A DNA stretch of 64,000 nucleotides from Sapria himalayana (Eukaryota > Streptophyta > Magnoliopsida > Malpighiales > Rafflesiaceae): contig JAREIK010005782.1 in NCBI GenBank assembly GCA_029783825.1, forward strand, positions 174,260-238,259. The letters run 5' to 3'. A program made the position numbers and the translations under genes. Positions within the stretch are counted from its first letter, which is position 1, and each line of letters begins with the position of its first letter. Below are positions 16,939 through 63,116 of the stretch, one piece after another. Below the pieces are notes generated by a model. That model did no database searches and was not told where the DNA came from. It saw nothing but the letters and a program-made list of their open reading frames with translations.

Positions 16939-16982
<44 letters not shown>

Positions 16983-22170: not shown

Positions 22171-22990
22171 GCACTAAAGCTAATCACTAAAGTATCTGAT
22201 ACCTAGTGACCAAGTGTGACCATCATGCTACCTCTATGCTAAAGCCTTGGTCAATGGGTCTGTTATGTTGTCATCTGTAGGTACTATGCATATCTTTATA
22301 TCTCCTCTATTAATAATCTATCAAATGAGATGGAACCTCCGAGGTATGTGTTTGGATCATTGATGAGATCTAGTTTCCTTAGCCTATGCAATAGCCTCAT
22401 TATTGTCACAATAAAGGTGTATTTGATTAGTTTTTCTTGGAACTAAATCAAGTTCTATGATAAAATTTCTGATCCAAATAGCTTATTTTGCCACATCAGA
22501 AGCAACAATACACTCAGCTTCTATAGTAGGATCAATAACTATATATTTCTTTGAACTCTTCCAGCTCATAGCACCACCATTTAAGCAAAATACATAACCT
22601 AACTATGATATTGAATCATCCCTATCCGTTTGGAAGCCTCCATTTCTACACCACTTTACAACAAGCTCCTAATCACCTTCATATATCAAGAAATAATTTG
22701 GAGTCCTTATTAAGTACTCTCACCTAGATCTAACTAGTATCTTTTCATCATGCTTAATGCATATGAGACATTAGGATGAGTACAAATCATGACATACATG
22801 ATAGACCAAATAGCAGATACATATGAAATCTTATCCATGCATTTTATTTCCTCTTTAATAGTGACATAGAGCCTTAGAAAGGCTCACTCCATGTGACATT
22901 GGCAAGAATCCTTTTTTAGAATTCTAGATGGCAAAATAATTAAGTACTTTATCAATATGTGCACTCTGACTCAAGGCAAGAAATCTTTTT
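22170..22990 (-). pseudogene. Ty1/copia pol, 3' part (end of reverse transcriptase and RNase H)
   Basis: Minus-strand translation gives, from 22990 downward, KRFLALSQSAHIDKVLNYFA, then the GFLPMSHGVSLSKA region. After that come the RNase H segments: a sequence around NGGxxxxWKSSKKYIVIDPT, IEAECIVASDVAK and LYCDNNEAIA (about 22388-22417), which includes the RNase H Asp, ending before the polypurine tract with TDPLTKAL-like residues. RNase H degrades the RNA strand of the cDNA hybrid. Several stop codons and frameshifts are present (for example around the TWLSIY-like region and near the C-terminus), so the gene is dead. The reading frame stops abruptly at the CACTA-2 insertion at 22991 and is picked up at 63114. 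Confidence 0.88.
22988..22990. repeat. CACTA-2 target-site duplication, left copy (TTT)
   Basis: TTT before CACTACAAG, matched by TTT at 63114-63116. It lies in a run of five T, so its exact phase is ambiguous, but excision with one copy keeps the copia frame open. Confidence 0.8.
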
Positions 22991-23420
22991 CACTACAAGA
23001 AAAATCCCATATATCAAGGGATAATTCCCTAACTAAATGGGCATTTTCTGTCGGTAAATGGGATATAGCGATTTATTAATGAATGAACTATTCCAAATCT
23101 AAAGTGCTCATCGCTAAAATTTAGTGAGGGAAAGTATCCCTAGCTAATAATTTAGTGACGAAAAACTCCATAGCTAAAAAGAATAATTTTTTTAGCTAAA
23201 TTAGCAAGCTAAATGAGAGTTTTCATTGCTAAACAGATATAACAATGGATGCTTTCCTAATCTCAAGTGCTCATCACTAAATATTAGCAATGGAAATAGT
23301 CCCTCGCAAAATAAATTCGACGGAAAAAATCGTTTGCTATAATAAAGATATCCCTAGCTAAATTAGCTATGGAAACATCCCTAGCTATTTTTAGAATTTA
23401 ATTTTTTTAAAAAAATTTTA
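22991..23420. repeat. CACTA-2 A-type terminus and subterminal repeats
   Basis: After the terminus, motifs such as ATAGCGATTTATTAATG, TAGTGAGGGAAAGTATCCC, TAGTGACGAAAAACTCC and TAGCTATGGAAACATCCC recur. The first 90 bases align closely with the reverse complement of the CACTA-3 right end (55379-55468), which identifies both as the same terminus type. Confidence 0.85.
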
Positions 23421-23539
23421 ATTAAAATAGAAACTAAAAATGATACTTTATAATTAACAAAAAAAAATTATTTAATAAATTATTCTAATACAATAATTTA
23501 CATAATTAAAATAAAAAAATAACAAAATTTTATATACTA

Positions 23540-23745
23540 TTCATTAATGTATCTACCAACAGTGCATAAATTATAATCTATCCATGCATTCACATTGTTT
23601 TCTTTCCCTCTTCTCCTCTGATCACCATCTTTCTAATGTGACAAAGCTGTCCGAGTCACGGTGCGTTATGTCTAGTGAAAAATCCCTTCACTTATACAAG
23701 CTTCGTATGGGGAACTATACGGTACCATATATGTAAGAAATTTAA
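23540..23745 (-). repeat. Conserved 200-bp block of the CACTA A-arm
   Basis: The reverse complement of this segment is closely similar to 53325-53530 and 54595-54800, including TTTCTTACATATATGGTACC, GTATAAGTGA.GGGATTTTTC and GGTGATC.GAGGAG. It is far better conserved between the two nested elements than the surrounding AT-rich DNA. No protein was recognised in it. Confidence 0.75.
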
Positions 23746-23814
23746 ACCACTCACTCAATTCAAAATAAATAAATAAAAAGTTATGTTTTGATAAATATAT
23801 AATATTGTAGTATA

Positions 23815-24745
23815 TATGTACATATATACTTGCATTTCACTTGTACATATATTACTACAGTATATGTACATATAAACTGTAGTATTATGTGTATATATAT
23901 CCTGAGTACATATATACTCATTATATATGTACATAAAATACTACATTATTATATGTGCGAATAACACCATCTACATAGGTATCATCATCATCATCATCAT
24001 CTTAAGACCTAGTATAATTAGAACCAATCATTGTAGAACCTAGAGTAAAAAAACATATTTACTCATACGTTCACTTTGTACTATGTGATAATTGCATATC
24101 AACACAATTACCAAGATTTTTAAGACCAACCTCTATCTGCCTCGCTGGACTTGACTTGAAATATCTTAATCCCAGAGCTTTAGAGAAAGTCTATAATCCA
24201 TGGCTTTTATTACCTGCATCAATAAGTAATGCACAATGATGATCAGACCAGCCCTAGCAATTATATATTCAAAAGTATGTATGTGTGTAAATGGGTGTGT
24301 ATGTATGACAATATATACATCTCTACAAATAAATATATGTACCCAATTATATATATACTCGATTTATACGTACGTATATACTATAGAATAAAAGTATGTA
24401 TATATTGAGTATATACTTACGTATATACTGAGTATATACTTAGGTAAATACTAAGTATATACTTACGTATATACTGAGTATATACTTAGGTAAATACTGA
24501 GTATATACTTAAGTGTATACTACAGGATAAACATACTTACATACCAAATATATACATACGTATATACTGTAGTATATATTTATGGATATACTGAGTATAT
24601 ATGTACAAATATACTCAGTATATATGAACATATATACTCGGTATATGCATACTTATATACTCAATATATGTAGATATATACTCAGTATATATGTAATTTA
24701 TACCAAGTATATATGTATGTATATACTATAGTATTATATATACGT
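23815..24745. repeat. TATATACTGAGTATATA array
   Basis: Dozens of copies of ATATACT(G/C)AGTATAT, an interrupted palindrome, joined by TACGTA or TTAGGTAA links. The most regular part is 24360-24520, where a unit of about 44 bases (CGTATATACTGAGTATATACTTAGGTAAATACTGAG region) repeats. A (CATCAT)n stretch lies at 23978-24002. The same palindromes recur after the conserved block's copies at 53090-53290 and 54375-54560. Confidence 0.8.
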
Positions 24746-25679
24746 ATGTATAATCACATAGCCTTAGATGACACACATACTTGTACTTTCATGCAAATAG
24801 ACATATCATCAAAGTCAACAGAATAAAATATTATAGGACTTTAAAACACACATATATGTCTCTCAAGCATGGTTAGCATTTCTAGTTCTTTTTCCTCTGG
24901 TACTTCACGCAGATTGAGAACATTATTACACCTGCACATGGCGCATAACATACTACATTTACAAACCAATAACCAATAACAAGCAGTTGTAGATCTAAAC
25001 TACGATGACGTAGATCTGCACAAAATAAGAGTGTCAAAAACAAACCTACGTTTGCGTGGAATTAATTTTTTGTTGCATCTCATAGCTTAATAGGCTAAGG
25101 TGTTGTTCCCAGCACCATGAAGGAACAGCCATGCCTTTTACATACCTATAATAGGCTAAAACTCTACCCACCAAATTTAGGGACAACAAACTTATTCACA
25201 GATATATAAAAATAGTTATTGTAGACATGAACAAACACAAATTAAAATTGATAGTCATATAACTTTAACAAAAATCTAAAAGATGTCCAGCAATGATGTT
25301 TATAGAGAAAGAGAGTGGAAAAATAAAATGTTTTAGGAATAATGATGATAATAAAAGTTAGGCCTCCTTTTGATCAAGCTGAAATCTGTAAATACAGAAC
25401 CCATGCAATGGAAGCACCATGGCAATGTCTGAATGCTTTGAATCATAATTTTTTCATGCATCTCACATCATGTGTCCTATAAAGATTCATTATTAGGTTA
25501 ATCAGCAAAGCAAAGAACAAAATCAGAATAAAAAAATTGAAGCCTAGAAAAAAATCACATCAAGTTTTGCTACACATAAACAAAAATCAATAACAGTTCA
25601 GAAATAATTCTGATACGAAATCATCCTCATAATTAGTAGGGAATTTTGTGAAGCTTTTCCTGTGTGGTTTGATAGCTGG
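24746..25679. other. CACTA-2 sequence between TNPA and the A-arm, no gene seen
   Basis: Downstream of TNPA on the minus strand, so probably its 3' non-coding region. Patches of mixed base composition (about 24880-25150, and 24110-24260 just left) look less AT-rich than surroundings and might be captured host sequence, but no protein could be named. Confidence 0.45.
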
Positions 25680-27598
25680 ATCTCATAATGCTATATGTTG
25701 CGTCAATGCCGCTAATTGTGACTCCACATAGGACATCTGCTATTGCATTACATTCTTAATTTCTTTCATCTCATCATTCATTTCTTTAATTTCTTGCATT
25801 TCTTCCATCAAATAAGTATTTAGCTCCTCCTTTTCTTCTTTCATTTCTTGTATGTCTTCCTTCAAATTAGTATACTGCTCATCTTTGTGTTCTTTAATTT
25901 TATATATTTCTTCCTTCAAATGAGATATCTGCTCATCATTTATTTTTCATTTCGGTCTCCATAACTACAATATGTTCATTTGTTTCCATTGCTTGTTCAA
26001 CCGCCTCATCCACTATTGTTGAGACAGATGAATTAGAAGTACAACTGCTACAACAAAATGCCACTCCCTTCGAGCCAATTTCGTACACTCACTGCTTCTT
26101 ATGGTCTCCAAATAAATAGGATCATAGTCAATTGGTTGAAGATCCATATAACACTTAACTTGTTGAGAAGTAGTTGTCACACGTTCCTCCAAATGTTCCT
26201 GAGATAAAATAATGAAAAATACTATTATAGATATACAAAAAATAAAATAATTATTTTGCATTCCAAATAACTTTCAAAATGTATTGTATTATTATAAAAT
26301 TTTATAAATATAATAGATTCTTACAGCAATCATCTGAGTCTTATTGTCAAAAAACTGACCATCCACTTTCTTCACATGCATCTTCTTAAAAATCTCATAA
26401 AATTGGGATCTCAACCCAATTATCCAGCCTAAAATATGTATTTATTAAGTAATAAAATAACAAATGATCAAAAATTTTAACAAAATTAATAAAACATTGC
26501 ATATATTTGATTTATTAGAATATTAGGACAACCACTAAATATATAAATGTTTATAATTTTAAAATTGTACAAAATCTTGAGCGTGCTCAATGCTCTACTT
26601 CAACCATCTTGTGTGTCGATAGTTTCTTCTACCTAGTCGAGCTACCTCACTTTGTCAATTTTTGCTGGCAATATCTGATTTTTTTTTCACATCTAGCTTC
26701 TCCCAATACTTAAGCCACTGGGGCCAGTCATCAATGGATATTAAATCAGGTCTTTCTTTCATATTATTCAATTTATGGACAAAATCAAAATACCATTGAT
26801 TAGCTTTGATCTCCCATAATGACGTTATCTTTACATCAAATTTGAGTGCCCATGTGTACTTATTCTTTATATTAAAAAATCACAAAAGAATTTATATTAA
26901 CAAGAACATATTTACTACTTGAATAATAACCAACATAATAGTTAAGTAATTAGATAATTATTTTTCAATGCTTTTGTTTTGTTATTTTTTACCTATCATT
27001 AAAAATAAGACTCTTTTGTTGATTCGAAAACTTTCTTTCAAGAGAATACTTTAGAATCATCCATTTTCTTGAAAGACTTTATAATTATAGTCAAGCACTT
27101 GTGAGATGGAATAAAACTATACAAATAAATAAATAATATTGAAAACAAGCAAATCATAACTATATATTTAAAAAAAAACTCCTGACAGTAACATCAGATT
27201 TTTTTTTTCAAGTCATATTTACATTTGTTTACCTCCCATCCATAATCTCAATTATTAACTTAGACTGAATGTAGAGGAAGACACAACATTTGATGATGTC
27301 ATTGGTTTTGTAAATTGGGAAACTATCGGTCTAAAATGTGGTGTAAGAGATAGAGATGAATCAAAAGTGTGTGCATGAAGCATAATGGATGGTGGGCTTA
27401 TATCTAATAAAGGTGATAGTAGAGGTCACAATGATGGTGATGCTGATAGAAATGGAGATGGTGATTGTGATGTTGAAATCTGGATATGATGGAAATGAGA
27501 TTGTACTGATTCTACAATATGATGTAACATACTAGATGAATTTGGTTCATTTTTGCATCCACGTCCAACTCCACCATGGCCACATCTTTTATGCGCCA
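25680..27598 (-). pseudogene. CACTA TNPA-like protein gene (Transposase_24 type), broken
   Basis: TNPA proteins bind subterminal repeats and assist TNPD in transposition. The start codon is at 27598 (MAHKRCGHGGVGRGCKN), a basic N-terminus usual for this family, followed by a Ser/Pro-rich stretch to about 27290. Recognisable exon pieces follow: about 27010-27120 (KMDDSKVFS region), 26580-26880 (a conserved segment around WYFDFVHKLNNMKERPDLIS and DDWPQWLKYWEKLDVKKKSD), 26330-26430 (FYEIFKKMHVKKVDGQF and DNKTQMIA), about 26015-26205 (EERVTTTSQQVKCYMDL onward) and 25690-25960 (Lys/Glu coiled coil with EEMQEIKEMNDEMKEIKN). Stops and frame changes occur within the exons, so the gene is unlikely to be functional. 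It lies directly downstream of TNPD in the usual CACTA order. Exon boundaries are approximate. Confidence 0.75.
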
Positions 27599-27894
27599 TT
27601 TGCTGTACAAATTAAAACATAGAACAAATAATACAAATATGATGAACAAGCATGCATTTTAGAATAAAACATACTGATAGATTTCAACAAAATTTAGAAA
27701 CTCTTTGATAGTTTAATATTATAATACAATTATAATAGTTTAATTATCGGCATCATTGTCCAATGGATCTTCTGATATTTTCTCTGATTCGATAGAAGTT
27801 CAAACTCATCTTTAGATAGAAATTGATCATCTTCAATTTCTATTAGGCCACTATTTGAGTAAGATAAATTTTCTTAATCTTCTTCTATATGCAC

Positions 27895-30800
27895 AGGCTA
27901 AATATTATATATGGCATCTTTCTGCAATACCGGTGCAATATCTAAGTCTGCACTTCTTTGTTGTGATGTTGGTACTTCAAAATTTGATCGAGCTTTGATT
28001 TTGCAAATCAGGCACCAATCACTCTTATCACGAGATAAACTCGGATATGTATAATAATATACTTGAGTGGCTTGAACTACCATAATAAATGGCTCATATC
28101 AATTATATCTTCATTTATGGTTAACATCTAATAACTTATAATCCGAATGAATCTTTGTTCTCACATTTCATGTAGGATTTAACAACTCGCACTTTAATAA
28201 TACAATCCTATTATTTTCGAGTCCAAGATACTCTAACTCATAACTTGTTTGAGTTGACCATGATAATTAATATCATCTACACTATAACCTGAGCCTTTAT
28301 GCATACACCAATATTCATTATTATTTTAGAAGAACCATGCTCGATTGTGTTAAATTTATATCCATTGATAAAATACCAAAGATAGGTTATCACATATCTA
28401 AACGGGCTTTTACTTAGATTCTGAATAAAAATATTTGAATCTCCATTTGAAGGATCAATTGCCTGTGATATAAATTTAAAAAATGATATTAACAAATAAA
28501 AGATACTAATAAATTAAATAATTCAAAAATTTAAAACTTAATAATTCTCACATAATTTTTGAACCAATTCGCAAATTCAGTTTCTAGCATATAATCGACA
28601 TAATTGCTAGAAATTGCTAGTTGCCTATATTTTAATTGCTAAACATAAATAATGCACAAATATAAAAAGGGAGAGAAAAATGTACATCCATTTTTAATAA
28701 TTCCTATTAAAGATAAAATTAAAATATGATTAAACTTGCAACCATTTTGGGTATAAATACTCAATATGCGGTGCAACCTCCTCACAATTAAGTAAAACGT
28801 AGTTATGGGTTGCTTTGTACTTTTCATCTATCATACATCTTTTTATTGCTCTTCCAAATGTTCTTCCAGGGTGCTTGAAGATAGATAGTTTGTCCACAAA
28901 ATCATCTTCTACCATCACATGACCTTCATCATTCCAAGACACATTACTATTATTTGTATTAACATGATCCTCAAAATAATAAGAACAAAATGATGATGCT
29001 TCTTCTACTAAATATGCATTACAAATTGAATTTCATCTTTTGTCTTGTTTCTAACATTCAATTTCAACTTACGAAGATACCTACAATCACAATGTTAGGT
29101 TTCAATTATATTATATTATAATATTACTTTGTATATGAAATAATAAAACAAAGCAATTTATATGTATTTACCTATCTTCAGGATACATCTACTTATATTG
29201 CACTAGGCCTGTTTTCCTTGCTTCATATGCCAAATGGACCGGCAAATGCTCCATTGAGTCAAAAAAAACTCAGTGGGAATATCTGCTCAAGCTTACAAAT
29301 AATAAGTGGAATGTCATTCTCCAACCTCACAATGTTATCTATTTTGATTATTGTTGTAGTTAGCTGTTTAAAAAAAAAAAAGTTCTGTAAGGACCTTCCA
29401 AATACTTAGGGGATGTAATTCACAGAATGCAATAGGTATTAATATTTATATAAATACATGATCATCATGACTTTTCATTCAAATTTGTATATCTGTGCAT
29501 TTACCCATATTTAACACATATCCATCAGAGAAATTCAAATTTTTAATCCATTCACACAATATATATCTTGCCTTTTTATCAAGTGAGTAGCGAGCTTTAG
29601 GGAATTTTTTTGTTGCCTCATTCAATTTAAATTCAGGACGCCGACATTAATCATTCAGCTTTTGTCTTGATTTTAAAGTATCTTTTATTTTTCCATCTAC
29701 ATTAAGGAAAATATTGAAAATATTATCAAACACATTTTTTTCAATATGCATTACATTTAAGTTATGATGAATTATATAGGAATTCCAATAGGGAAAGTCC
29801 CAAAATATACTACGTTTACTACAACCAAATATTTTGCCTATCGATCCATTACTTCCATAAGCATCCTTTTTAGTTACCTTATTCAAACCTAAACTCTAAA
29901 TCTCTGTCATAATCATCTCCTGAATGAACTGCTGGTGCAACTGTCATAACAGTTTTATTTTTTTGAAATGCAGTTCTATTTCTTTGAAATGGATGATTCG
30001 TATGTAGAAACTTACGATAGTTATCAAACCATGACTATTTACCACTAAATTTGAGGGTAAATGCATCATAATTCTTTATGCAATGTGGGCATGCGAATCA
30101 TCCTGAAATACTCCAGCCATACAACATTGAATATGAAAAAATATCAATTACTGTCCACATAAGGGCCGCCTAGATAAATAAATTTTGCTTCTTTAAGATA
30201 TCATATGTTTTCACACCAACATCCCACAAATGATTTAACTCTACTATAAAAGGCTGTAAAAAAATATCCAGCATGTCTTTCGGTTTTTTTGGCCCTGGAA
30301 CCATTTTTGACAAAAACATATATTACTCCTTCATACACAACCATAGAGGCAAGTTATAATGTGCCACTATCATTGGTCATGTTGAATACTATATTCTATA
30401 TTGCTCAAACGGTTGAAATCCATCTATGAAGAGACCCAATCTCACATTTCGACTTTCACCTACAAAATCTTGATGTATATAATTAAAATGGTTCCAAGCA
30501 AGTGAATATGATGGATGACACATTATCCCTTCTTCAAACACATGCTCAGAATGCCACCTCATATCATTGCTATATCATTTGATGCATATAGTATGAGTAA
30601 TCGAGGAATTAATATAAATTATACATCTTTTTAAATGCAACCTTTAATTTTTGTCACGTATCTACAACACGAGATGCCTTCTTAAATCAAGGATGATAAC
30701 AAAACTTACAGCTAATATATCACTATCACCACCCCAATATAAAATACATCTATTAAAATAACAATCAATTTTTTCCACTGGTAGACCCATTCCTCGTAGT

Positions 30801-31351
30801 AACTTCTTAGTGTTGTAAAAGTTATTAGTGATCAAATTATTATCAGGGACTATCTCCTTCATCAGTTTTGACATTTGATCAAATAATTTCTCAAACATAT
30901 GATTTTCTGACTTAATGCTCATAAGTCGAGCCACAAGTAACAATTGCAAATATGTTTTACAACTAGACTATAACTCTTTATCTTCAGCTTTAAGCATTTC
31001 ATAAAATTTATGAGCTTCAGGCTTAGGTGGTTCATCCATGTAATCCTTATTGAAGTCAGCACCAGCAGCTTCCATGATCATTCTATGGTATGTGTTTGAT
31101 GCTTTTTCACCACAAGCAAACGATTCAATACCCTCATTTTGGTCAATGTTCCGAGCCATTGTACTTTCCCCATTACAAATCCAATCAAAATAATTTGGCA
31201 CAAAGTCATATTTAGCCAAATGGTATCTTATAGTGTTTACATCACGAAAAGGGATATTCTGACAATTACGATGATTACATGGACACTTAATCTTTTCTCC
31301 ATCCATCCATCTAGATTGACTACATGCAAAATTGATGAAAATTTTAAGCCA
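27895..31351 (-). pseudogene. CACTA TNPD transposase gene (Transposase_21/TNP2), broken
   Basis: TNPD is the catalytic CACTA transposase. From 31351 downward: transposase-associated domain (NFACSQSRWMDGEKIKCPC, then CQNIPFRDVNTIRYHLAKY, about 31160-31351); a linker with an in-frame TAG near 30968; then NNFYNTKKLLRGMGLPVEKI (about 30760-30830). The Transposase_21 core (about 29640-30560) has recognisable segments MRWHSEHVFEEGIMCHPSYS, NVRLGLFIDGFQPF, VPGPKKPKDMLDIFLQP, SMLYGWSISG and CPHC, and HHNLNVMHIEKNVFDN. After further pieces (MEHLPVHLAYEARKTGLVQY, about 29170-29260), the C-terminal domains of the family follow: a DUF4218-like part at 28730-28942 (FKHPGRTFGRAIK, HNYVLLNCEEVAPHIE) and DUF4216-like parts at 27898-28600 (VITYLWYFINGYKFNT, VVQATQVYYYTYP). 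At least a dozen stops or frameshifts make it non-functional. Upstream is a long GA/CT tract that could have been its leader. Confidence 0.85.
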
Positions 31352-31690
31352 CTAAAAAAATATTTATTCAAAATTCCATTAATAAACCTTTAGTATATCT
31401 ACTAATGATATGAACTCATTTTGCCCTGTTATATTTACAAAAAACAATCCTCAAATATTATTTTGAATTAAACATTCTATTACTTCAAAATATACTAATA
31501 ATTAAATAAAATTACTTACAAATGAATATTTAAAAATTAAATAACATCAATATCGAGGCAATGCATTTGCAGAATTTATATGAATAGATAAAGTAATTTT
31601 AGCATTATAAAGATTAATAGATATCATGGTATTACTAGATAAAGGGCCCAAAATATGATAATGTACAAGAAAGGAAAGCAAGAATGAAAG
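31352..31690. other. AT-rich region upstream of TNPD
   Basis: Between the first recognised TNPD exon and the CT/GA tract. It probably holds TNPD leader or first-intron sequence; nothing specific is visible. Confidence 0.4.
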
Positions 31691-32080
31691 ACATTTAAAG
31701 TTTGAAGGGGGAGAGGGATAGAGAGGGAGAGAGAAGGTGGGGAGAGAGATAGGGACAGAGAAATGGAGAGATGGGGAGAGAGAGAGAGAGAAAGGGAAGA
31801 GGGAGAGGGAGAGAGAGAGAGAGAGAGAGAAAGGGGGTAGAGAGAGGGGGAGAGAAATGGTGAAAGGGAGAAAGAGGGAGAGAGAGAGGAGGGAGAGAGA
31901 GAGATGGAAAGAGAGAGAGAGAGAGCTAGAGGGAGGGAGGGAGAAAGAGAGAGAGAGAGATAACAAGTAAGAAAGGAGAGTGAGAAAGAAAAAAACAAGA
32001 GAGAGAGTGTGTTACATAGAAAGAAAAATAGGAAGAGAGTGACACAGAATGAATTAGAGAAGGAGAGAGAGACTCACATA
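31691..32080. repeat. 300-400-bp GA/CT-rich tract upstream of TNPD
   Basis: Plus strand GAGAGAGA with GGGAGA variants; on the TNPD strand this is a CTCTCT pyrimidine tract starting about 340 bases before the first recognised exon. CT-rich leaders and GAGA-type sites are common in plant promoters, so a promoter role is possible. Reading frames through it (Ser/Leu/Pro or Arg/Glu) are not genes. Confidence 0.85.
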
Positions 32081-32379
32081 GAATGTAGTGTTAGAATGAG
32101 GAATTACATAAAAGAAAAACAAATTTTATTCTATACAAAACTATTAGATATTACATCTTTTGTCATACACAAGTTCATATATGAGTCTGAGGCCTAAGGG
32201 CTGGGATTAGGTAAGTGTACCTTAATTGTAGTATATCATATATGAGCCTGATCAACGGACACTCTCATGCTATGTGCTTACATATTGTTGATTATATATC
32301 TTTTGCCATTTAATCAAGTTAGTGCAACAAATTAGAATTATCCCATTAATAATTATGTGTTAGTATACACATAGTATAT

Positions 32380-33930
32380 GTAGTCATAAATAATTATATA
32401 TAGTTAAACATATAGTTATATATAGATACATGCATACAAGTAATTATAAGTAGTTATACATAAATGTATAGTTTTAAATAATTATATAGATTTACATACA
32501 TTTATACATATATGTATTCATAATTAAAAATAAAGTTATATTTATTTATATAGAGTTTTTTATAGTTATACAAATATTTATATATAGTTATACACATATA
32601 GTTAAATTTATGTTGTATGTTTTTATATATAAAATTATAAATATAGTTACATGTGGTTATACATATAGTTACACGTATAGTTAATCTAATATTTATACAT
32701 GTATGTATGTATATATATTTTTATATAATTTCATATATTTATACATATAGTTATGTATAGATATAGATATACTAAAATACATTTTTTATACTAATATATA
32801 AAAATGTATATTAAATATATGTTGTTAAATATATATTTAAATATAGTTATGTATAAATTTTTTATAGGTATACATATAGTAAGATAGAATTATTTATAGC
32901 TAATTGTTATATACATATAATATATCTAGTTATAAAAAATTATATATCATTAAACATTTAGTTATATATATATATATTCATATGAGCAGTTATATTTAGT
33001 TTTACATAAATATATACATAGTTATAAACAAATATATAGATTACATATATGTATAAATAGTTAAAAATATAGTTATATTTAATTATATAAAGTTTTATTT
33101 AGTTTTACAAATATTTATATATAGTTATACACATAATTAAACATAATGTTGTATGTTGTTATACATGTAATTATAAATAAAGTTACATGTAGTTATACAT
33201 ATATACCCATATAGTTTAACTTATATTTATACATGTAGGTATATATATATATTTTTATAATATCTTATATTTATACATATAGTTATGTATAGGTATATAT
33301 ATACTAAAATACATTTTTTATACTAATATATAAAAATATTTAGTAAATATATGTTGTTATTTATAAATTTTTATATATTTATGTATAATGTTTTTATAGT
33401 TATACATATAGTCAAAGACAATTATTTATAGTTATATGTTCTTATACCTATAGTATATATAGTTAAAAATAGAGTTATATATAGTTAAACATATAGTTAT
33501 ATATAGATATATTCATAGAAGTAGTTATAAGTAGTTATATAAAAATGTATAAAAGGTTATAAACAAATAAATAGATTAATTATAAGAATACATATCTATA
33601 TACATAGTTACAAATATAGTTATATTTAATTATATAGAGTATTACATAGTTATACAAATATTTATATAGTAAAATACAATTAAATATTGTTATATATTAT
33701 TAAACATATAGTATATTTTGTTAGAAATATAGTTATATAGAATTATACATATAGTTATAAATTATAATTAAGTTAAAAAAATAGTTATATATAGTTGTGG
33801 ATATAGTTATAAAATTAGTTTACATAGTTACAAATATAATAAAATATAGTTATAAAGAGCTTTATATAATTATACAAATATTTATAAATAATTATACATA
33901 TATAGTTAAACATATTGTTATTGATCATCC
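32380..33930. repeat. Higher-order repeat of about 540 bp made of TATAGTTATACATA units
   Basis: Short TATAGTTA(T/A)ACATA units form a larger period: blocks starting near 32385, 32930 and 33470 align over at least 200 bases (each passes through GTTATACAAATATTTATATA-type sequence), and a block with ACTAAAATACATTTTTTATAC occurs near 32770 and 33305. Related sequence recurs at 60600-60720 in the other half of CACTA-2. Confidence 0.75.
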
Positions 33931-35402: not shown

Positions 35403-35408
<6 letters not shown>

Positions 35409-50960: not shown

Positions 50961-51385
50961 TTTATCAAAAAACAGAGCCCACACTTCAAACTATGCGTTT
51001 AATGGTAGCAATAACAATGTTTTAGGGTTCTCACAGGAGATCTACAATGTCATAGCTTACGATGGTGTTCATATAGACATGAGAACAATGCTTGTAGATT
51101 GGGCTCCCATCTACAGGCTCTTCGTGAGGGTAAAACCTCCTCTGCCAGCAATTTCACATCATGGACACTCCGGTAAGCTCAGATAGGTAAAAGATGTTGT
51201 GTGGACTATATTCATCAGTGGGGGCCATAACAACTACTATTGCTCCAGGCAACATAATCTAATACGAGTAATGAGTGTGCAGATCAACTGATGACAAGAA
51301 GCAGCTCTATGATGGATGCACATGAATTCATTAGTGGTGACATGGAGAGTGGTGTTCAACATGTTGTTTCACAGGTGAGTAATTT
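50961..51385 (+). pseudogene. Unidentified captured exon-like sequence
   Basis: Base composition here is clearly less AT-rich than on either side. One frame at about 50980-51180 stays open and reads TSNYAFNGSNNNVLGFSQEI, then YNVIAYDGVHIDMRTMLVDW and APIYRLFVRVKPPLPAIS. After a gap, another at about 51285-51374 reads CADQLMTRSSSMMDAHEFIS followed by GDMESGVQHVVSQ and stops exactly at CAG|GTGAGT, a good plant 5' splice site. This looks like an exon pair or an exon with a frameshift taken from a host gene. The protein was not recognised. It could also be part of an unrecognised transposon gene. Confidence 0.4.
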
Positions 51386-52429: not shown

Positions 52430-52439
52430 TTGAATTTTA

Positions 52440-53075
52440 TTTTGGCAGCGGCGGCGGCACCAGTGGCACCAGCATTACCGGCCGCACTGCTAGCAGTGGT
52501 AGAGGTGGCAGAGGCGGTAGCAACGGCGGCAGCGGCGGCAGCGGCAGCAGCGGCGGCAGCGGTGGCAGCGGCGGCAGCGGCGGTAGCGGCAGCGGCGGTA
52601 GCGGCAGCAGCGGCGGCAGCGGCGGCAGCAGTGGCATCAACGGCAGCGGCGACATCTGTGGCAGCACTAGCAGCAATGGCTATGGCGGCGGCACCGGCAG
52701 CACCGGCATCACCAGTCGCACTAATAGTAGTGGTAGAGGTGGCAAAGGCGGCAGCAGCAGTGGCAGCGGTGGCATCAACGACAGTGGCGACATCAATGGC
52801 ATCAACGGCAGTGGCGACATCAATGGCAGCACCGGCTGTAGTGGTAGTAGGGTGTGCAATAGTGGCGGTAGTGGCTGCAGTAGTGGCTGTGGAGGAAGCA
52901 GTGTCGGCAGGAGCGACAGCACCGGCAGCAGCGACAACGATGGTAGTAGTAGTGGCAGCAGTCGCAGCAGTAGCGGTGGAAATGATGGCAGCGGCGGCAA
53001 CGACGACACCAACGGTAGTAGCTACGGCAGTAATAGCGGTAGAGGCAGCAGCAACGGCAGCAGGAGCAACATAAA
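52440..53075. repeat. GGC/AGC trinucleotide array 1
   Basis: About 630 bases of GGCGGCAGC / GGTAGTGGC units. It translates as Gly/Ser in one forward frame, Ala/Val in another and Leu/Pro on the reverse, all open because the array lacks stop codons. There is no conserved start, promoter or domain, so it is treated as an expanded trinucleotide repeat. It stands immediately left of the palindrome array and the 200-bp block at 53325. Confidence 0.85.
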
Positions 53076-53089
53076 TGACAATAAATGCG

Positions 53090-53560
53090 GTATATACATA
53101 CGTATATAGTCGGTATATAAGTACATATAATACTGCAGTATTTTATGTGTATATATACTGAGTATATATGTACTCAGTATATATGTACACATAATACTGT
53201 AGTTTATATGTACATATACTGGGATAATATATGTACGAGTGAAATGCTAGTATATATATACATATTTACTGCAGTAATATATATAAATATATATTAAAAC
53301 ATAGTTTTTTTATATTTATTTTGATTAGATTAAATGGTTTAAATTTCTTACATATATGGTACCACATTATTTTCCATTCGAAGCTCGTATAAGTGAAGGG
53401 ATTTTTCGACAGACATGATGCACTGTGATCGGACAGCATTTTTGCAGCAGAAAGTTGGTGATCGGAGGAGTAGATGGAGAGAAAGCAACATTAATACATG
53501 GATAGATTATACTTTATGCACAGTCAGTAAATACATTGATTAATAAGATGAAATATAATT
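53090..53560 (+). repeat. A-arm module copy 1 (palindromes plus 200-bp conserved block)
   Basis: TATATACTGAGTATATA-type palindromes at 53095-53290, then the conserved block at about 53325-53530 matching inverted 23540-23745. Confidence 0.8.
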
Positions 53561-53859
53561 TTGTTTTATTTTTGTTGCAGTTATTTAAAATATTGTATTA
53601 GAATAAGTTATTTAATGAATTTTTTTGTTTACTTTAAAATTTTCATTTATAGTTTCTGTTTTTATTCAAATTAATATAAATATATTAAATTATTTAATTA
53701 AATTTTTGTTGAAGCTATGTTACAATCAACTTTAATATATGTTTGTTCATGTCTATAATAACTATTATTATATATATGTGAATATGTTTGTGTGTCTCCG
53801 AATTTTTTGGGTAGATTTCAGCCTATTATAGGTATGTAAAAACTGATTATCAGCAACAG

Positions 53860-54370
53860 TAGCAGCGACATCGGTGGCAGTGACGGTAGCGGTGGCAGTG
53901 ACGGTAGCGATGGCAATGGAAGCAGAAGTTGTGGTAGTGGGGGTAGCAGCAGCGGCAGAAGCAGCAACACTGGCTGCATTGGAAGGAGCGGCGACAGCGG
54001 CGGTTTTAGCAGCTGCAACTGAAGCATTGGCAGCATCGGAAGTAGTGGCAGCATCGGAAGTAGCGGTAGAGGCAGTAGTGGCAGCAGCGACTACAGCAGT
54101 AGCAGCAGCGACAGTGGTAGCAGCGGTAGGGGTGGCAGTGGCAGCACCGGCATGCATCGGTAGCACCGGCAGCATTAGTAGCCACTCCAGCGACCAGCGG
54201 TAGTAGTGGGCAGCGGCGGCAGTAGTAGAGGCGGCAGCAGTAGAGGCAGCCACGACAGAGTCAGTAGTAGAGGCAGCGGTGGCAGCGGCGACAGCAGCAG
54301 TGGTATTGGCAGCAACATCGGCAATGGCAGAAGCAGCAGGAGAGGCAGCGGAAATAGCAGCAACAACACC
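53860..54370. repeat. GGC/AGC trinucleotide array 2
   Basis: A second array of GGCAGC / GTAGCAGCG units. Together with the following palindromes and block it repeats the module 52440-53560 about 1.3-1.4 kb further on. Open frames encode only Ala/Val, Gly/Ser or Leu/Pro runs. Confidence 0.85.
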
Positions 54371-54374
54371 AAAT

Positions 54375-54830
54375 GAGGTATATACGTATGAATAAAGTTA
54401 GTATATACGTACATTTAATACTATAGTATTTTATGTACGTATATACTGTGTATATTTGTACTTAGTTTATATGTACACATTATACTGTTGTTTATATGTA
54501 CATATACTACAGTAATATATGTACAAGTGAAATACAACTATATATTTATATATATACTGCAAAATTATATATGTATCAAAACATAACTTTTTTTGTTAAT
54601 TTGAATGAGTTGTTTACTTTTCTAAAAAATATGATACCACCTTGTTCCTCTTACAAAGCTTCTATAAGTGATGAGATTTTTCACTAGATATTACGTGATG
54701 TTACTCGGACAACTTTGTCACAGTAGAAAAATGATGATCGGGAGAGTAGAGGGAGAGAAAACAATGTCAATGAATGGATATATTATTCTTTATGCAATGT
54801 CGGTAGATACATTGATGAATAAGATCAAAT
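54375..54830 (+). repeat. A-arm module copy 2
   Basis: Palindromic TATATACTGTGTATAT-like repeats at 54375-54560 and a second copy of the 200-bp block at about 54595-54800 (recognisable by TATAAGTGATGAGATTTTTC and AAATGATGATCGGGAGAG). More diverged than copy 1. Confidence 0.75.
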
Positions 54831-55029
54831 AAAAGTTTGTTGTTTTTTTTGTTTCAATTATGCAGAATATTAAATTTACATAAAGATTTTAAATGATTTT
54901 ATTTTTTTTATTATAAATTATTTATAGTTTCAATTTTTATAAAATTTGTTATAAAAATATTAAATTATTTAATTAAAAAATTTAAAAATTTTTAAATTCT
55001 GAAATTATTTTTGAAATTAAAATGGCTAG

Positions 55030-55468
55030 TAAATATTTTCTTGATAAATAGCAAGGGAAAAATCCCTTGCTAAATTAGCGAGGAATTTTTCCTAACTAAT
55101 TTAGCTAGGGACATATTAAAATTAGCGACGGATAATTTGTTGCTAACTTTATTTAGCTATGGACTATATCCGTCACTAAAATTTATAGACAACACTTTAG
55201 CTAGGGAATAATTCGTCATTATTTTTGTTTAGCGATGGGATATCTCGTTTATCTTGCTAATTTAGCGATTGAATTTTTCTTTTTTAGCAATTGATTTTTC
55301 CGTGGCTAACTTTTTAGCTAGGGACACTTCCTTCGCTAAAATTTAGCAAGAATCACTTTAGATAGGGAACCAATCCATCCGTAATTCGTCGCTATATCCT
55401 GTTAAGGTATTGAAAATGCCCATTTTGCTAGGGAATTGTCCCTAGCTCATGGGATTTTTCTTGTATTG
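55030..55468. repeat. CACTA-3 A-type terminus and subterminal repeats
   Basis: Motifs such as TTAGCGAGGAATTTTTCC, TTAGCGACGGATAATTTG and TTAGCTAGGGACA recur; it ends in GGGATTTTTCTTGTATTG. The last 90 bases align with inverted 22991-23080. Confidence 0.85.
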
Positions 55469-57567
55469 TTTGATGTTAGCGGTGCTAATCATATTTTTTC
55501 AATTACTTATTTTTAAAATTATTTATACTTTTAATTATTTAGTTTTTGAGTGCACTCTATTTATAACATGATACATTACATATATTTATTTATTAATTTT
55601 TTTTATCTCATTATAAAATTTTTAATTTTATTATAGTTTATAATATTACTATGATGCTTATTTAGTATAATAGTATCAATGTTCATTTTATTATTTTGGT
55701 ACAATTATTTTATCTTTTCTATTTTCCACTTAACTTAAAGTCTTTGAATTTTATTCTTTAACAATTCAATTTTACTATTGGTATAGTATAAAATTCGTCG
55801 AGCATGCCACTAGGGTTTTTGAGAATTCACCACATAATGTGCCAACAAATACTATAAATTTCTTGAGTGAAGTATTTTAAAACATTCTCTAAGTTTGTCA
55901 CATTCTTCATCTTCTCACGATCTTAAAGTTTCTTAATATTTTTTTTTCAAATTTAATTATTAACTTTTGCATTATTGATCTGTGAGTTAAAAATTTTTTT
56001 TTGGTAAATTTCTATTCTTCTTAAATCTTTTTTTATAATAGCTGATGCCCTACCAGCTTATGCTAATATTATATGATCTACAATGTGTTATAACATTATT
56101 GTTAATCTTATTATTTTGAGTTATCATGCTAAATAACTTAATTTTAATTTTAGAGTAAACCATGTTTTTTTAAAATATTTTTGTAGGATTTATATAACTT
56201 TGTGGATGACTTTTCTAAGAATTGATCATGTTGTCTATCCATATTTTTGTCATATCAGAGGATAAATTAGATGCTTAGTTTTCATTAATCTTTTTTTATT
56301 CACTATTAGTTTAATTTTTTTGTTTTGATAAATTTAAAACTTATGAAATCAAGCATAAAGTATATTATTTATATTAATAATGAGGTACACTTAAGAAAAT
56401 ATGCTAGTGTTTTTATAGTATGTCAAGAAAATATTATTAGAAATATATTTTATCTAGATTACCTAGAATATTATATAATATTATTATGTAAGATGACTTT
56501 TATTATTTTGTTAATTATTTTTATAAATAAGTATTATCGCATTACATAATTCATATCTCATAAAGAAAAAAATAATTTTTATATATTTATACTTTATTTT
56601 TAAAAAATGATTGATATTCACTAAAAATATGAAATAAATATTCTTAAAAATTATATTATTATATAATATACATTGTGAGAATTTGTATTTTTCTTGAAAA
56701 AACATAAAGTGATTTATCTTATATTTTAAGTAGTCATATTATTTTCATATTGAAAATTTAGAGATTATAAAAAATATCCAATTAAGACAACTTTAAAATG
56801 TTTTTTTATAAGACATTTTAGGATGAATCAATTATGATTACAAATTACTTAATCATATTGATATCTTCTTTTATTTTTATCAAATTGTATTTCTTATCAA
56901 TTATTTAATCACATCATTTATCATTCGTGTTGTAAGGGGTATGAATTTTGTTCAAATGTTTCTTTAAAAGTAAAAAAATAAATTGTCATCTCATGTCTTT
57001 CTAGGCCATTATAGTATTCAAAAAAATATAACTGCAATTCATCATTACCACAGATTAGTAATTGAGTGATAAAATTTCTTTAAATATACTTTTTGTCATG
57101 GCAATCTATGTGAGGCTAAAAAGATTATTTTCAAGTTAACTCACATTTGGGTTTTCTTAGGAATTTTGTGGACATTTTTTTAATGATTTTCTTAATCTTA
57201 AATATCATTTAGCCAGAACATATAATAATATGAGTAAGTTGAGTTTGCCATGAATTATTATAGATAAAAATTCATATAAATTGTGATGATTTAATATTTA
57301 TTTAATATGAAATCAATCATTTGATAGTAAAAACTTTCTAACTACTTATATTCAAGATAAAAATAATGATGATATTAGGGAAGAGAATTTATGTTAAAAT
57401 ATTTTAATCATATATATTTAAATCCACTTTTATGTTATGTAATGATTATGTTTTTTTATAAAAAGAAATATTATTATAATTTTATTTTTTATTTTGTTAC
57501 TTAATTATGATTTTTTGAATAAGTAAGAAACTAATAATATTTTTTTTTTATTTTGATGAATTAATTT

Positions 57568-57619
<52 letters not shown>

Positions 57620-59310
57620 CTCTCTCTCTCTCTCTTTGATCTTATTTTGAATTAAAAGTTTTTATATCAATGTCTCAAGAATTATGTCTTAACTTACTAA
57701 TTATTCACCTTGTTATTTTATGCTTTTGCCTCTATAGGTATTTAAACTTATAGTATAAATTATATCTCATTCTTGTTTTATTTAATTAATAATTAATTTT
57801 TAATAATACACTTAATCATAATGATTTAAATAATGAAATGTATTTGGAAAGTCTTCAAGATTCACATTTTTATGATTTTTTTGAGTTAACATATATTATT
57901 TCTATAAATATGGCTTGGAGGAAAGTTGTGTTATATTTCTGTAGTTGATACTATTATTATATATATTAATGAAATGAATAATTTTATATTCAAATATTTT
58001 TTTTATAAAAGTTTCGAATAGCTCAATGATTTAAATATTTTTTTAGTTTTTAAGTAATATATTTAAATGAAAACTTATTTTATTTCAGCTTATGTTTATG
58101 TGATTATTTATCGATGGGCGTTCCATTGTTATCTCTACTAGATATAAAGAAAAATATGAGAATATAGTTTCTCTTATTCTTTAGGATTGATATTAGAAAT
58201 GTTTTCAATATTGTAAATCTTTTATTAGGTTTTCTCAAGAAGATGTATGCTGTGGTCCTATTTATATTCACAAATATATGAAAATATGTATGGAATTGCT
58301 TTTATTCTCTGAGTGATTCAAGATATTTTTGATTATTTGACTATTATTATTATTATTATTTTTGTGTTTCAATAATAATAAACCATAATATCAATTAATA
58401 TTTTTGTATATTTTTCTAAAAAAAAATTTATATATTAGAAAATATGTTGTTATATACACACTACAAATATTTATAAATAGTTATCATATATTATGATAAC
58501 AACACACTCTCAAATGCCCAATTGAATTACACCACTATAGTGAAAGAACTTGTATCAACAATCTTTTCTTTTGACAAGTTAATATCATATTTAGTGGGAA
58601 CCAAAGTCATAGTATATACTAAATATTCTATAATCAAATATATCATAAAAAAGAAAGATGTCAAGTCTAGATTGATTTGATGAATTTTACTATTAGAATA
58701 GTTTGAACTAGAGATATTAGGTAAGAAATGTACATATAAGCAAAATTGAAAATAGCTTATCAAGACTAGAAAAAAAAGATAGAAGAGTTGTTGAAGAAGA
58801 TATTAGATAGATTTTTTTATTTGAACAAATTATAATATTGAATGAAAATTAACTCCATGGTATGTAGTATTGAATTAACCTTATCATTGCAAGTAGTACT
58901 TTGATCAAAATTTGAGGCAAAGTGTTATAGTTGGGAGAGTAGTAGTATCTTGTAATAAGGTCACTTTTTGCTCCTGCTCTTACAAATTTGTGGAACATGT
59001 TAATATTTATGTGCTCAAGTATTTTTCTTCTCAAAATCAATGTTGATATTTACATATATATGCATAAATATATATGTGCATATACACTACCCTACACACA
59101 CACACACACTCACATTTATCCATCCATATACATTATTATTCATTATATATCAGCACACATATTTGTACTTTTGTATATATTCACACATGTATCTACATTT
59201 TCAAAGTAGTGTGTATATACTTGTATGCATGCATATACTACTGTAACCCCCACATACACACACATATACCTATATACATAATGTATTTTTAAAGTTACAC
59301 ATAAAACTAT

Positions 59311-59355
<45 letters not shown>

Positions 59356-59927
59356 AAATGTATTTAAAATTTTTTGATTTTGAAAATTTAATTAAAATAA
59401 AATATTATATATTTCACATAATTTATAAAATATTATAAATTCTTTATGATTAATTTAAATATTTGTGTGTGTTTGTATGCATGTGTCCGTGTGTGTGTGT
59501 GTGTGTGTGTGTGCATGTATGTGTGTGAGTGTGAAGCATATGAATGCATAAAATTAAACTATGAATTAAATATATGAGCTTCTATATTATTCATATAGTT
59601 GTTTTTTAATATTTATATTAAAATAACTATCATTATACTTATATAAATAAATGAATTTGTCAAATTTGTAAGTTATTTTTTTTCTACAATTATGTTAAAT
59701 ATGAAAATATAGTTCATAAATAGATAATATTATTTTTGTTTTTCGATATAATTTTTTTATTAAAATATTAATGACTGAAAAATTTCTACCAATTATTTAT
59801 TATTATTAATAAATTTTTAGAAACTTTAATATTCAAACAAATATAATGTTGTGCATATAAATACATGCCTTTAATGTTTTGTAAAAAATCAATTATTTCT
59901 TTAATTATGTTCAAACAAAATAGATTA

Positions 59928-60004
<77 letters not shown>

Positions 60005-60766
60005 TAAATTGTTCTACAAGTAATTATTTATTTTTATTTTATTCAAAATATATAAATGACCATATAAATATATGAATTTTTTTTTTAATAATTATTTTTA
60101 AATTTTTTTTCAAGTTGAATACATGACGATGTTTTTTTGTAATTAATATATACATTTCAAACATTATTTATTTATGATAAATATAACATATTGCATATTA
60201 TGAAGTACAAATTTTATTTTGTAAATGAATTTTATTTTTAAAGCTTTATCTTTGTAAATTGAAACTACGGCACATATATATTTTAAAATTTTTTTATAAT
60301 ATTTATTACACAAACATATTATTATTGTTTAGAAATTTACAACATGAATTTAAATAAATGAACATTTTATTATAAATCAATTTTAGTTAAATGATATTAA
60401 GTGAAACAAAAATACAAACCCTAAACATGTTAAATCATAATGATTTATACAAACATATAAAAATACAATAAAAATTCATTTAAGGTTGAAAAAATTAAAT
60501 TTATGTTCCTAAAATATATGGAAAATGATATAGATTAATACAATATCCAAAAAAAAACATGTATGAATGAGATGAATGATATGAATGGATATTAAGTTTC
60601 TGAAGCATGTACTTATACATGTTGCAGATCTAGTTATATATAGTTTTTCATGTAATTATATATATTTAGACATATGACTATGTATAGGTATTGATGTAGA
60701 TAAATACAATTATATATAGTAATATGTTGATATATATATTGTTAACTACATTTATATATAGTTTTT

Positions 60767-60843
<77 letters not shown>

Positions 60844-61778
60844 ATGTATATTAAATATATGTTGTTATATCTATATATAGTTATGTTCATGTATATTATT
60901 TTTATAGTTATAGATACAGTAAAATACACTTATATATTTATGTCTTATTACTCTTGGGATTATCATATTTAAATATTAAATATATTGTTATATACACACT
61001 TCTCACCACAAACACCAACACCCATTTTGTGATTTACATTTAAAATCACAAGGCTATCGAGTGGAAAAAAAATAAAAATCAAGTCAGCATACCTGCTGTG
61101 CAGCATCAACATCCACACAATGAGATGGCATTATATCACACATGCATGAAGTATATATACAAATCAATTTATAAAAGAAATCCAAGCATACCATGGTGAT
61201 TAATGAAGAAGAATTTCGAAATAAAAAATAAAAGGATCAAAACACACACTTTTCCTTTAAAATAATCAATGAAGAAATAGGGTAGAAAACATACTTCAAA
61301 TCAATAAGAAATTCTCACTTACCCTTCGATTAGGTTTTGATGCATCGGTGTCGAGAGATAGAGGCGGACTGTGAAGGACTTAGGCACTAGTTAGAGTTGT
61401 CTCTTGAGTCTCGACAACAAGTGACTATATATTTTACCATAATATTTAAATTTTTCATTATAAAAACATTAAATAAACAATAAATATATAATTTACAAAA
61501 AGACTCATTTTTTTTATTTATTATCAAAATAACTTCAACAAAATTCATGTGCATGTAGCAAGTACACATGAAAAACAAACACCTTATTATTTTTTATTAT
61601 AAAATTAATTAAACAATAAATATATAAACAATTTCAAAAAAATATATGTTTAGCCTTATAACAAATAAAATCAAATAGCTACAAAATTTATAAACTTCAT
61701 ATAATAAGACATATATGAAATGATAATTTGTCTTCTAGTCACTCTTCTAAGAGTTATAAAATATTTTTTATGCTAAAA

Positions 61779-61812
<34 letters not shown>

Positions 61813-62509
61813 TTTATTTATTTTTTTAATAAAGACAGAATTTTAAAAGCTAATAGTAAAATTATTACTCATTTAATTTTTATATATTTTAGTATGAGCA
61901 CACATCTATGTATTTATTTTTAAATAGTAATTTATTTTCTTTTAAATTTTTTAAAAAAATTAAATTATTATTATAATTCAAGATTTTCAAATTTTCTATT
62001 AATTATTTTTTTAAAAGTTTCATATAATCATAAATTTTTTTTATACTTATAATAATATTAATATTTACTAGTTTATTCGTCAATTCAGATATTTTTGAAA
62101 ATATTTTTTATTTAATCATACAATGAATTATTTTACATTTATATTAGTTGAATTTTTAATGTATGTTCATTTAATTTTTAAAATATCTTAAAAAATTATT
62201 ATAATCATAGAATTAATTATTTAATCTTACTTTAATAATAAGTTTATAAATTAAAAATTTTAGAAAAATTTTTTGTATAATTTTTTTAAAAATTTATAAT
62301 CATAAAAATAGTTATTTTTCCTTATTAATATATATATTTTTTGTATTTTTATATATTTTAAATTATTTATTTTTATATCATTTTTTATAATTTTACGAGG
62401 AGAATGTGTCTTTCAAGAATCACTCATCTATAGACCATAACATATATTTGATAAACAAAATTAAATAAAATAGTAAAACAAATAATAAATTTAAAAAAAT
62501 TAAATAGTT
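55469..62509. other. Right half of CACTA-2, no gene recognised
   Basis: It begins with the TTT duplication copy of CACTA-3. AT-rich throughout. Microsatellites: (TA)n then (TC)n at about 57573-57634; (AC)n at about 59093-59109; (TG)n with a GCGCGCGCG run at 59322-59355; (TG)n at about 59487-59514; (TA)n at 59930-60001 and 60773-60829. TATAGTTATA-type repeats at 60600-60720 resemble 32380-33930. From about 61740 to 62435 lies the inverted copy of the CACTA internal segment seen at 6161 and 50071. Short reading frames show no family resemblance. Confidence 0.5.
59322..59355. repeat. (TG)n(CG)n alternating purine-pyrimidine run
   Basis: About 10 TG units, then GCGCGCGCG, then TGTGT, directly after a (TA)n run. 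Alternating purine-pyrimidine sequence of this kind can adopt left-handed helix form; that is general knowledge, not shown here. Confidence 0.9.
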
Positions 62510-63113
62510 AAAGATTGGCTAGAGAAATTCAATCTCTAAATCTATAGCAATATTCCGGATGTAATTAGTAGGAAAGTTCCGTCGCTAAATTCATCATTAT
62601 ATTCTTTATTTTATTAGCTAGAGAAATTTCATTGCTAAAACACATCACTATTTTCCAGATGAAATTATCTAGGAAAATTCCGTCGCTAAATCAGTTGCTT
62701 TATTCTGGATGAAATTAGCTAGGGAAATTTCATCGCTAAATCCATAAATATATTCTACATGTAATTAGCTAGGTACTTTCCATCACTAAATCCATCACTA
62801 TATTTCAGATTATATTTGCTAGGAAAATTCTGTCACTAAGTCCATTGCTATGTTTCATATGAAATTAGGTAGGGAAATTGTATCGCTAAATTCATCTCTA
62901 TATTCCGGTTGAAATTACTAGAGAAATTACGTCGCTAAATTCTCGTTTTTTTGTGCAGAATTTACATGGCTATTCTGTTGCTAATCCATTGCAACTTTTT
63001 ATCTCAATGAAAAATCAGAAATCCCTTACTATTCACTAGCTAATCCCTCGCAATTTAGCTAGGGATTGATCCTTAGCTAAAATTCCCTAGCTAAATAAAC
63101 ATTTTTTGTAGTG
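62510..63113. repeat. CACTA-2 B-type terminus and subterminal repeats
   Basis: Regular units such as GAAATTAGCTAGGGAAATT followed by TCGCTAAATC.AT repeat about every 60 bases from 62530 to 62950. It ends in TTTTTTGTAGTG. The terminal 120 bases align with inverted 34198-34320. Confidence 0.88.
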
Positions 63114-63116
63114 TTT
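63114..63116. repeat. CACTA-2 target-site duplication, right copy (TTT)
   Basis: TTT directly after the terminal GTAGTG; pairs with 22988-22990. Confidence 0.8.

What the first reader, a model, noticed from the sequence alone, without database searches (positions are those of the whole stretch)
22988..63116. A 40.1-kb CACTA element splits a copia reverse transcriptase with the reading frame preserved across the junction
Seen: copia pol on the minus strand stops at 22990 and resumes at 63114; the interval begins CACTACAAG and ends TTGTAGTG with TTT on both sides. Counting one TTT, the two copia pieces continue in the same frame and in the conserved order (YIDD region, then KIYKDRA, then KRFLALSQ). 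The host frame gives independent proof of both ends of a very long element.
Basis: partly seen in the sequence, partly recalled or inferred. Interest (0 to 1): 0.8.

Follow-up and report, generated by a model that had tools for sequence, protein, structure and literature searches.

The report
Two nested CACTA transposons splitting copia
A long stretch of DNA that interrupts an old copia retrotransposon, probably in a plant genome, is best read as one ordinary-sized CACTA jumping gene with a second, related CACTA element lodged inside it back to front, rather than a single giant element.

Summary
In detail: the junctions lie at 22990/22991 and 63113/63114, TTT flanks both, and the span is 40,123 bp. 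In all 55 copia relatives that could be scored (of 120 examined), the two copia pieces abut with no residue gained or lost when one TTT is counted.

The reading as one 40.1-kb element is not supported. The interval holds two further CACTA ends, at 34198 and 55468, each with TTT outside. Ends 22991 and 55468 form one sequence class (A); 34198 and 63113 form another (B), with 50-bp subterminal arrays. Copia ties A(22991) to B(63113), leaving B(34198)...A(55468) as a second, reversed element inside.

The outer element is then 18,849 bp and carries a decayed tnp2-type transposase gene (Transposase_21, E 1.2e-56). The inner one is 21,271 bp, has no CACTA transposase that Pfam recognises, and shares its ends but almost nothing of its core with the outer one. 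Both sizes are near a published 20.5-kb soybean CACTA; wheat CACTAs reach 30 kb and nesting is common there. No copy lacking the inner element was found, and the host genome could not be reached. This is a clear example of a known kind.

The parts
22991..63113 (-). Outer CACTA element with the inner element inside; 40,123 bp in all, 18,849 bp without the inner element and one TTT. Strand given is that of its transposase gene.
   Evidence: exact CACTA termini, TTT on both sides, copia offset 0 in 55 of 55 scored relatives of 120
22988..22990 (.). TTT, left copy of the outer target-site duplication
63114..63116 (.). TTT, right copy of the outer target-site duplication
22991..23391 (+). Class A end of the outer element
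   Evidence: 72.9% identical in reverse to 55072-55468; score 232 against shuffle maximum 32
62514..63113 (-). Class B end of the outer element, with 50-bp subterminal array 62514-62940
   Evidence: 62931-63113 is 77.7% identical in reverse to 34198-34385; array
34198..55468 (.). Inner CACTA element, 21,271 bp, reversed relative to the outer one, non-autonomous
   Evidence: two termini with TTT outside, classes B and A; no CACTA transposase family
34195..34197 (.). TTT, left copy of the inner duplication (inferred)
55469..55471 (.). TTT, right copy of the inner duplication (inferred)
34198..35085 (+). Class B end of the inner element, 50-bp arrays 34573-34837 and 34858-35079
53098..55468 (-). 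Class A end of the inner element; terminus reads CAATACAAG
   Evidence: reverse matches to 22991-23982 and 25136-25279
28015..31348 (-). Decayed CACTA transposase gene of the outer element: Transpos_assoc 31166-31348, Transposase_21 29912-30529, DUF4218 29162-29275, DUF4216 28015-28239
58480..58704 (+). Gypsy-type RNase H relic in the right arm of the outer element
   Evidence: RT_RNaseH E 4.6e-10
63117..64000 (-). Right copia piece (reverse transcriptase), cut off by the window's end
   Evidence: RVT_2 E 2e-19
22160..22987 (-). Left copia piece (end of reverse transcriptase, then RNase H-like region to the LTR)
   Evidence: 141 relatives found, best E 7.7e-80; LTR start at 22159 read by hand

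Best explanation
The interval is two nested insertions. An 18.8-kb CACTA (En/Spm) element with its own transposase gene moved into the pol gene of a copia retrotransposon and duplicated TTT (shown by the exact ends and the copia residue register). A second element of the same end family, 21.3 kb, without a recognisable CACTA transposase and in the opposite orientation, moved into an AT-rich part of the first and again duplicated TTT (inferred from its two ends, their classes and flanks). It was presumably moved by transposase supplied in trans by an autonomous relative, since it keeps the terminal and subterminal sequences (inferred). Copia and the outer transposase gene have since decayed.
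For: Five sites combine TTT outside (on the + strand), CACTACAA with at most one mismatch, and at least 4 subterminal motifs in 250 bp: 5653, 22991, 34198, 55468, 63113. End classes with the first 13 bases removed: 22991 with 55468 scores 232 (maximum of 200 shuffles 32), 34198 with 63113 scores 143 (31), the four mixed pairs 26, 44, 29 and 37 (32, 29, 41, 31). Along the map the classes run A, B, A, B. Copia pairs 22991 with 63113, and nesting then accounts for both remaining ends as one intact element. G+C steps at both inner junctions: 0.169 to 0.305 and 0.264 to 0.207. Inner and outer cores share one 33-bp match. Unequal subterminal regions at the two ends are known: 159 bp and 732 bp in soybean Tgmt* (PMC2613891, passages). 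Related CACTAs with the same ends and unrelated cores are known (PMC8195511, passages).
Against: No copy of the outer element without the inner one was found; outer flanks joined in a script matched nothing else in the window across the join. The inner end at 55468 reads CAATA. TTT lies outside every CACTA end here, so it cannot choose between pairings. Two mixed pairs score a little above their shuffle maxima (44 against 29, 37 against 31), so the classes share motifs. Without the TTT condition one more motif-rich site appears, 55174 (one mismatch, 13 motifs), inside the class A end region of the inner element.
Confidence: 0.88

Rival explanations
1. One long CACTA element of 40.1 kb that carries internal copies of both of its end regions, made by internal duplication and inversion.
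For: The outer ends are a valid pair at one copia site; a 40,619-bp CACTA span has been listed in Ipomoea nil (PMC5105172, passages).
Against: The internal ends are not just subterminal copies: each runs exactly to a terminus with TTT outside, one of each class and facing each other. Internal duplication would not be expected to stop at the exact termini with TTT twice.
Confidence: 0.06
2. Like ends are partners (22991 with 55468, 34198 with 63113): two overlapping elements, with the copia insertion made by the outermost ends of two different elements (a macrotransposon).
For: Like ends resemble each other most, and maize hAT termini of separate elements are known to act together (PMC4270019, PMC9910405, seen in the listing only).
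Against: The two pairs cross, which two intact insertions cannot do; it needs extra rearrangements. Unequal ends within one CACTA element are documented (PMC2613891, passages).
Confidence: 0.04
3. An assembly join at one of the junctions.
For: No reads were available and the host genome search did not complete.
Against: A random join would not fall exactly on CACTA termini with TTT on both sides and leave copia at offset 0.
Confidence: 0.02

Closest known systems
Tgmt*, a 20.5-kb CACTA (En/Spm) transposon of soybean (PMC2613891, passages read)
   Same: Imperfect 13-bp CACTA inverted repeats, 3-bp duplication, unequal subterminal regions, tnp2 transposase, similar size.
   Different: Here the transposase gene is decayed, the element is interrupted by a relative, and no second (TNPA-like) gene was recognised.
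Tpn1 family of Ipomoea nil, longest 40,619 bp of 339 (PMC5105172, passages read)
   Same: A terminus-to-terminus span of about 40 kb, AT-rich 3-bp duplications, non-autonomous copies that keep their ends and replace their cores.
   Different: Those were called by pairing termini and duplications; the word 'nested' does not occur in that paper's main text, and whether its longest copy is nested I do not know. Here the span resolves into two elements.
Nested transposon clusters of wheat chromosome 3B (PMC4290129, passages read)
   Same: CACTA, copia and gypsy elements in nests; 30,199 nested insertions, up to 8 layers; CACTAs up to 30 kb.
   Different: Here a coding register at one junction confirms it; the kind is the same.

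Membership tests
CACTA (En/Spm), outer element | CACTA terminal inverted repeats | tested here: met
   11 of the first 13 bases agree, counted by hand
CACTA (En/Spm), outer element | 3-bp target-site duplication | tested here: met
   TTT on both sides; offset 0 in 55 of 55 scored copia relatives, 65 of 120 not scored
CACTA (En/Spm), outer element | Subterminal repeats at both ends | tested here: met
   motif clusters in the bins at 23.0 and 62.5-63.0 kb; 50-bp array 62514-62940
CACTA (En/Spm), outer element | TNPD-type transposase (tnp2) | tested here: met
   Transposase_21 E 1.2e-56, with Transpos_assoc, DUF4218 and DUF4216; broken by stops
CACTA (En/Spm), outer element | Second gene for a subterminal-binding protein (TNPA-like) | tested here: inconclusive
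   no such Pfam family in the parts of the two arms scanned; such proteins share little similarity (PMC2613891, passages)
CACTA (En/Spm), inner element | CACTA terminal inverted repeats | tested here: met
   CACTACAAAAATA and, reversed, CAATACAAGAAAA: one change in the CACTA core; 10 of 13 agree, counted by hand
CACTA (En/Spm), inner element | 3-bp target-site duplication | tested here: inconclusive
   TTT at 34195-34197 and 55469-55471, but 2.8% of random pairs agree, every CACTA end here has TTT, and no empty site was found
CACTA (En/Spm), inner element | Subterminal repeats at both ends | tested here: met
   motif clusters in the bins at 34.0-35.0 and 55.0 kb; 50-bp arrays 34573-34837 and 34858-35079
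CACTA (En/Spm), inner element | TNPD-type transposase (defines autonomous members only) | tested here: not met
   no CACTA transposase family in six frames of 35.1-54.9 kb; so filed only as a non-autonomous member
Ty1/copia retrotransposon (host) | RVT_2 reverse transcriptase | tested here: met
   E 2e-19 in the right piece
Ty1/copia retrotransposon (host) | LTR beginning TG after a purine-rich tract | tested here: met
   GTGGGAGAT then TGTTAGAG at 22159, read by hand; the 5' side lies outside the window

The most novel reading that the evidence does not exclude
The inner element was already in place when the outer one jumped into copia, so the whole 40.1-kb composite was cut and pasted as one unit between its outer A and B ends. 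That would be about as long as the longest CACTA span I saw reported (40,619 bp).
Probability: 0.2. Interest if true: 0.35.

Novelty: new member of a known kind. Interest (0 to 1): 0.15.

Why it matters
It replaces a claimed 40-kb single transposon by two elements of ordinary length. It also shows a practical trap: pairing CACTA termini by equal 3-bp duplications (TTT at every end here) can turn a nest into a giant element, while the class and orientation of the ends resolve it. The nest also gives a partial order of events: copia before the outer CACTA, and the outer CACTA before the inner one entered it. If the composite moved as a unit (the novel case), it would bear on how long a CACTA element can be and still transpose.

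Tried and rejected
Pairing of like ends was considered first and rejected because the pairs cross and because copia fixes 22991 with 63113. Inversion of one end region was rejected because the ends at 55468 and 63113 face the same way. An empty-site search for the inner element within the window found only its own flanks and short, mostly AT-rich matches on one side of the join. A Pfam scan of the left arm's + strand, to see whether the gypsy relic continued across the inner junction, found nothing. Searches of PDB, Rfam and tRNAs gave no match. The window's own genome could not be searched. The literature search for macrotransposons listed two maize papers and mostly unrelated ones; I opened none of them. 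The searches gave listings that I did not open.

Full report
Observation. The sequence reads TTT (22988-22990) then CACTACAAGAAAAAT, and ...TTGTAGTG (to 63113) then TTT (63114-63116). The interval is 40,123 bp. On the minus strand the right flank reads ...YIDDITSH...MKDLGEAAYILSLKIYKDRA and the left flank KRFLALSQSAHIDK.... RVT_2 is matched in the right piece at profile positions 43-210 of 244, ending three residues from the junction; the left piece matched no retroelement family in Pfam in the three frames given. A protein search with the left piece, stops as X, found 141 relatives, of which 120 were listed. Each copia piece was aligned to each of the 120 separately: 55 scored on both sides and all 55 put the pieces side by side at offset 0, counting one TTT. 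Of the 65 not scored, 40 were low on both sides, 24 on the right only and 1 on the left only; they are shorter (median 224 residues against 342), and with a looser cut 61 of 61 gave offset 0. Copia thus holds a clean insertion with a 3-bp duplication. The copy is decayed: 13 and 17 stops in the two frames used.

What the interval contains. Self-comparison showed that 22991-23391 is matched in reverse by 55072-55468 (72.9%) and that 34198-34385 is matched in reverse by 62931-63113 (77.7%). Both internal positions are CACTA-like termini with TTT outside: TTT|CACTACAAAAAT at 34198, and TTGTATTG|TTT at 55468. Of the rows that passed a scan for TTT-flanked CACTACAA-like termini, five had at most one mismatch and at least 4 subterminal motifs in 250 bp: 5653 (4 motifs), 22991 (11), 34198 (13), 55468 (11) and 63113 (11). 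Two two-mismatch rows also had motifs: 35026 (11; inside the class B array) and 35345 (5). Without the TTT condition one further motif-rich site appears, 55174 (one mismatch, 13 motifs), inside the class A end region of the inner element; three exact octamers at 36972, 49661 and 58459 have no motifs.

Two classes of ends. With the first 13 bases removed, 22991 and 55468 align with score 232 (200 shuffles, maximum 32) and 34198 and 63113 with 143 (maximum 31). The mixed pairs score 26, 44, 29 and 37 (maxima 32, 29, 41 and 31), so two of the four are slightly above chance. Class B ends carry 50-bp tandem arrays (34573-34837, 34858-35079, 62514-62940); no 50-bp array was reported at the class A ends at the score cut used. 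Soybean Tgmt*, 20.5 kb, has unequal ends of this sort: 4 repeats in 159 bp on one side and 24 in 732 bp on the other (PMC2613891, passages). The simplest reading is that A and B are the two ends of one element type. The outer element is A(22991)...B(63113), paired by copia; the inner is B(34198)...A(55468), reversed, 21,271 bp, with TTT at 34195-34197 and 55469-55471. Without it the outer element is 18,849 bp. G+C steps at both inner junctions, from 0.169 to 0.305 and from 0.264 to 0.207.

Contents. The left arm of the outer element carries on the minus strand Transpos_assoc, Transposase_21 (E 1.2e-56), DUF4218 and, in another frame, DUF4216 (coordinates). A protein search gave 290 relatives, 120 listed; the best is 54% identical over 66% of the query (source without an organism name), the next is from Ipomoea nil (53%), and the organisms named in the list are plants. 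That, with the copia and hAT relatives (one copia hit is labelled as a bacterium), is why I take the window to be from a plant; nothing names the species. The right arm holds a gypsy-type RNase H relic. The inner element shows no CACTA transposase family in six frames of 35.1-54.9 kb, one weak TNPD-fragment match (E 0.08, 16 residues, of 30 fragments tested), and a core that shares one 33-bp stretch with the outer core. It holds hAT-type relics (the output was cut). Related CACTAs with the same ends and unrelated cores are known (PMC8195511, passages; PMC5105172, passages).

Mechanism. Shown: the outer ends, the outer duplication, the copia register, four CACTA-type ends in two classes, and a transposase gene in the outer element alone as far as Pfam can tell. 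Inferred: that the inner ends belong to one insertion, that it moved by transposase supplied in trans, and that it entered the outer element. Not known: whether that happened before or after the outer element entered copia. If before, the whole 40.1-kb composite moved as a unit; this is the most novel reading that the evidence leaves open.

Against this reading. No uninterrupted outer element was found in the window. The 55468 end is CAATA. TTT is outside every CACTA end here, so duplications cannot choose between pairings. The host genome was never reachable.

Known or new. CACTAs up to 30 kb and nests up to eight layers deep are reported in wheat (PMC4290129, passages), and a 40,619-bp terminus-to-terminus span in Ipomoea nil (PMC5105172, passages). 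A phrase search for 'nested CACTA', 'another CACTA' and the like listed three papers, of which I opened one, for other terms. I make no claim that CACTA-in-CACTA nesting is unreported. Verdict: a clear, ordinary example of nested CACTA transposons.

Noticed in passing
18180-22030: A 3,851-bp hAT element in the copia 3' LTR: TIR TAGAGGTGTCAAACGGGCC, 8-bp duplication TATTCATC (18172-18179 and 22031-22038, read by hand), and a 739-codon frame without stops (19010-21229) with zf-BED, hAT RNase H-like and dimerisation domains. It looks complete; activity not tested.
   Followed up: partly
5653-14718 (right end approximate): A third CACTA element: class B end at 5653 after TTT, in a (TATC)n array that resumes near 14735; 14298-14567 matches the outer element at 25675-26257 in reverse. 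The right end is degenerate and was placed by eye.
   Followed up: partly
7879-8040: Stretch resembling part of an ATP synthase subunit (PF00231 positions 211-265 of 285, E 9.1e-9, 35.9 bits, below the curated cut-off of 39.9) inside the third CACTA element: a possible captured gene piece.
   Followed up: no
385-5650: A 5.3-kb degenerate (TATC)n array (64% matches); further pieces at 14735-15217.
   Followed up: no
15215-16735 and 16765-22159: Two LTRs of the same copia type head to tail, 29 bp of GATA-rich DNA apart; the second belongs to the copia studied here and holds the hAT element, the first looks like a solo LTR (ends read by hand).
   Followed up: partly
52443-54397: GC-rich triplet-repeat stretches in the inner element, open in several frames with low-complexity translations; probably not genes.
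   Followed up: no
38509-41394 and 43545-43673: Decayed hAT-type relics in the inner element, for example 63% identical over 65 residues to the hAT frame at 19010-21229, and a DUF659 match.
   Followed up: partly
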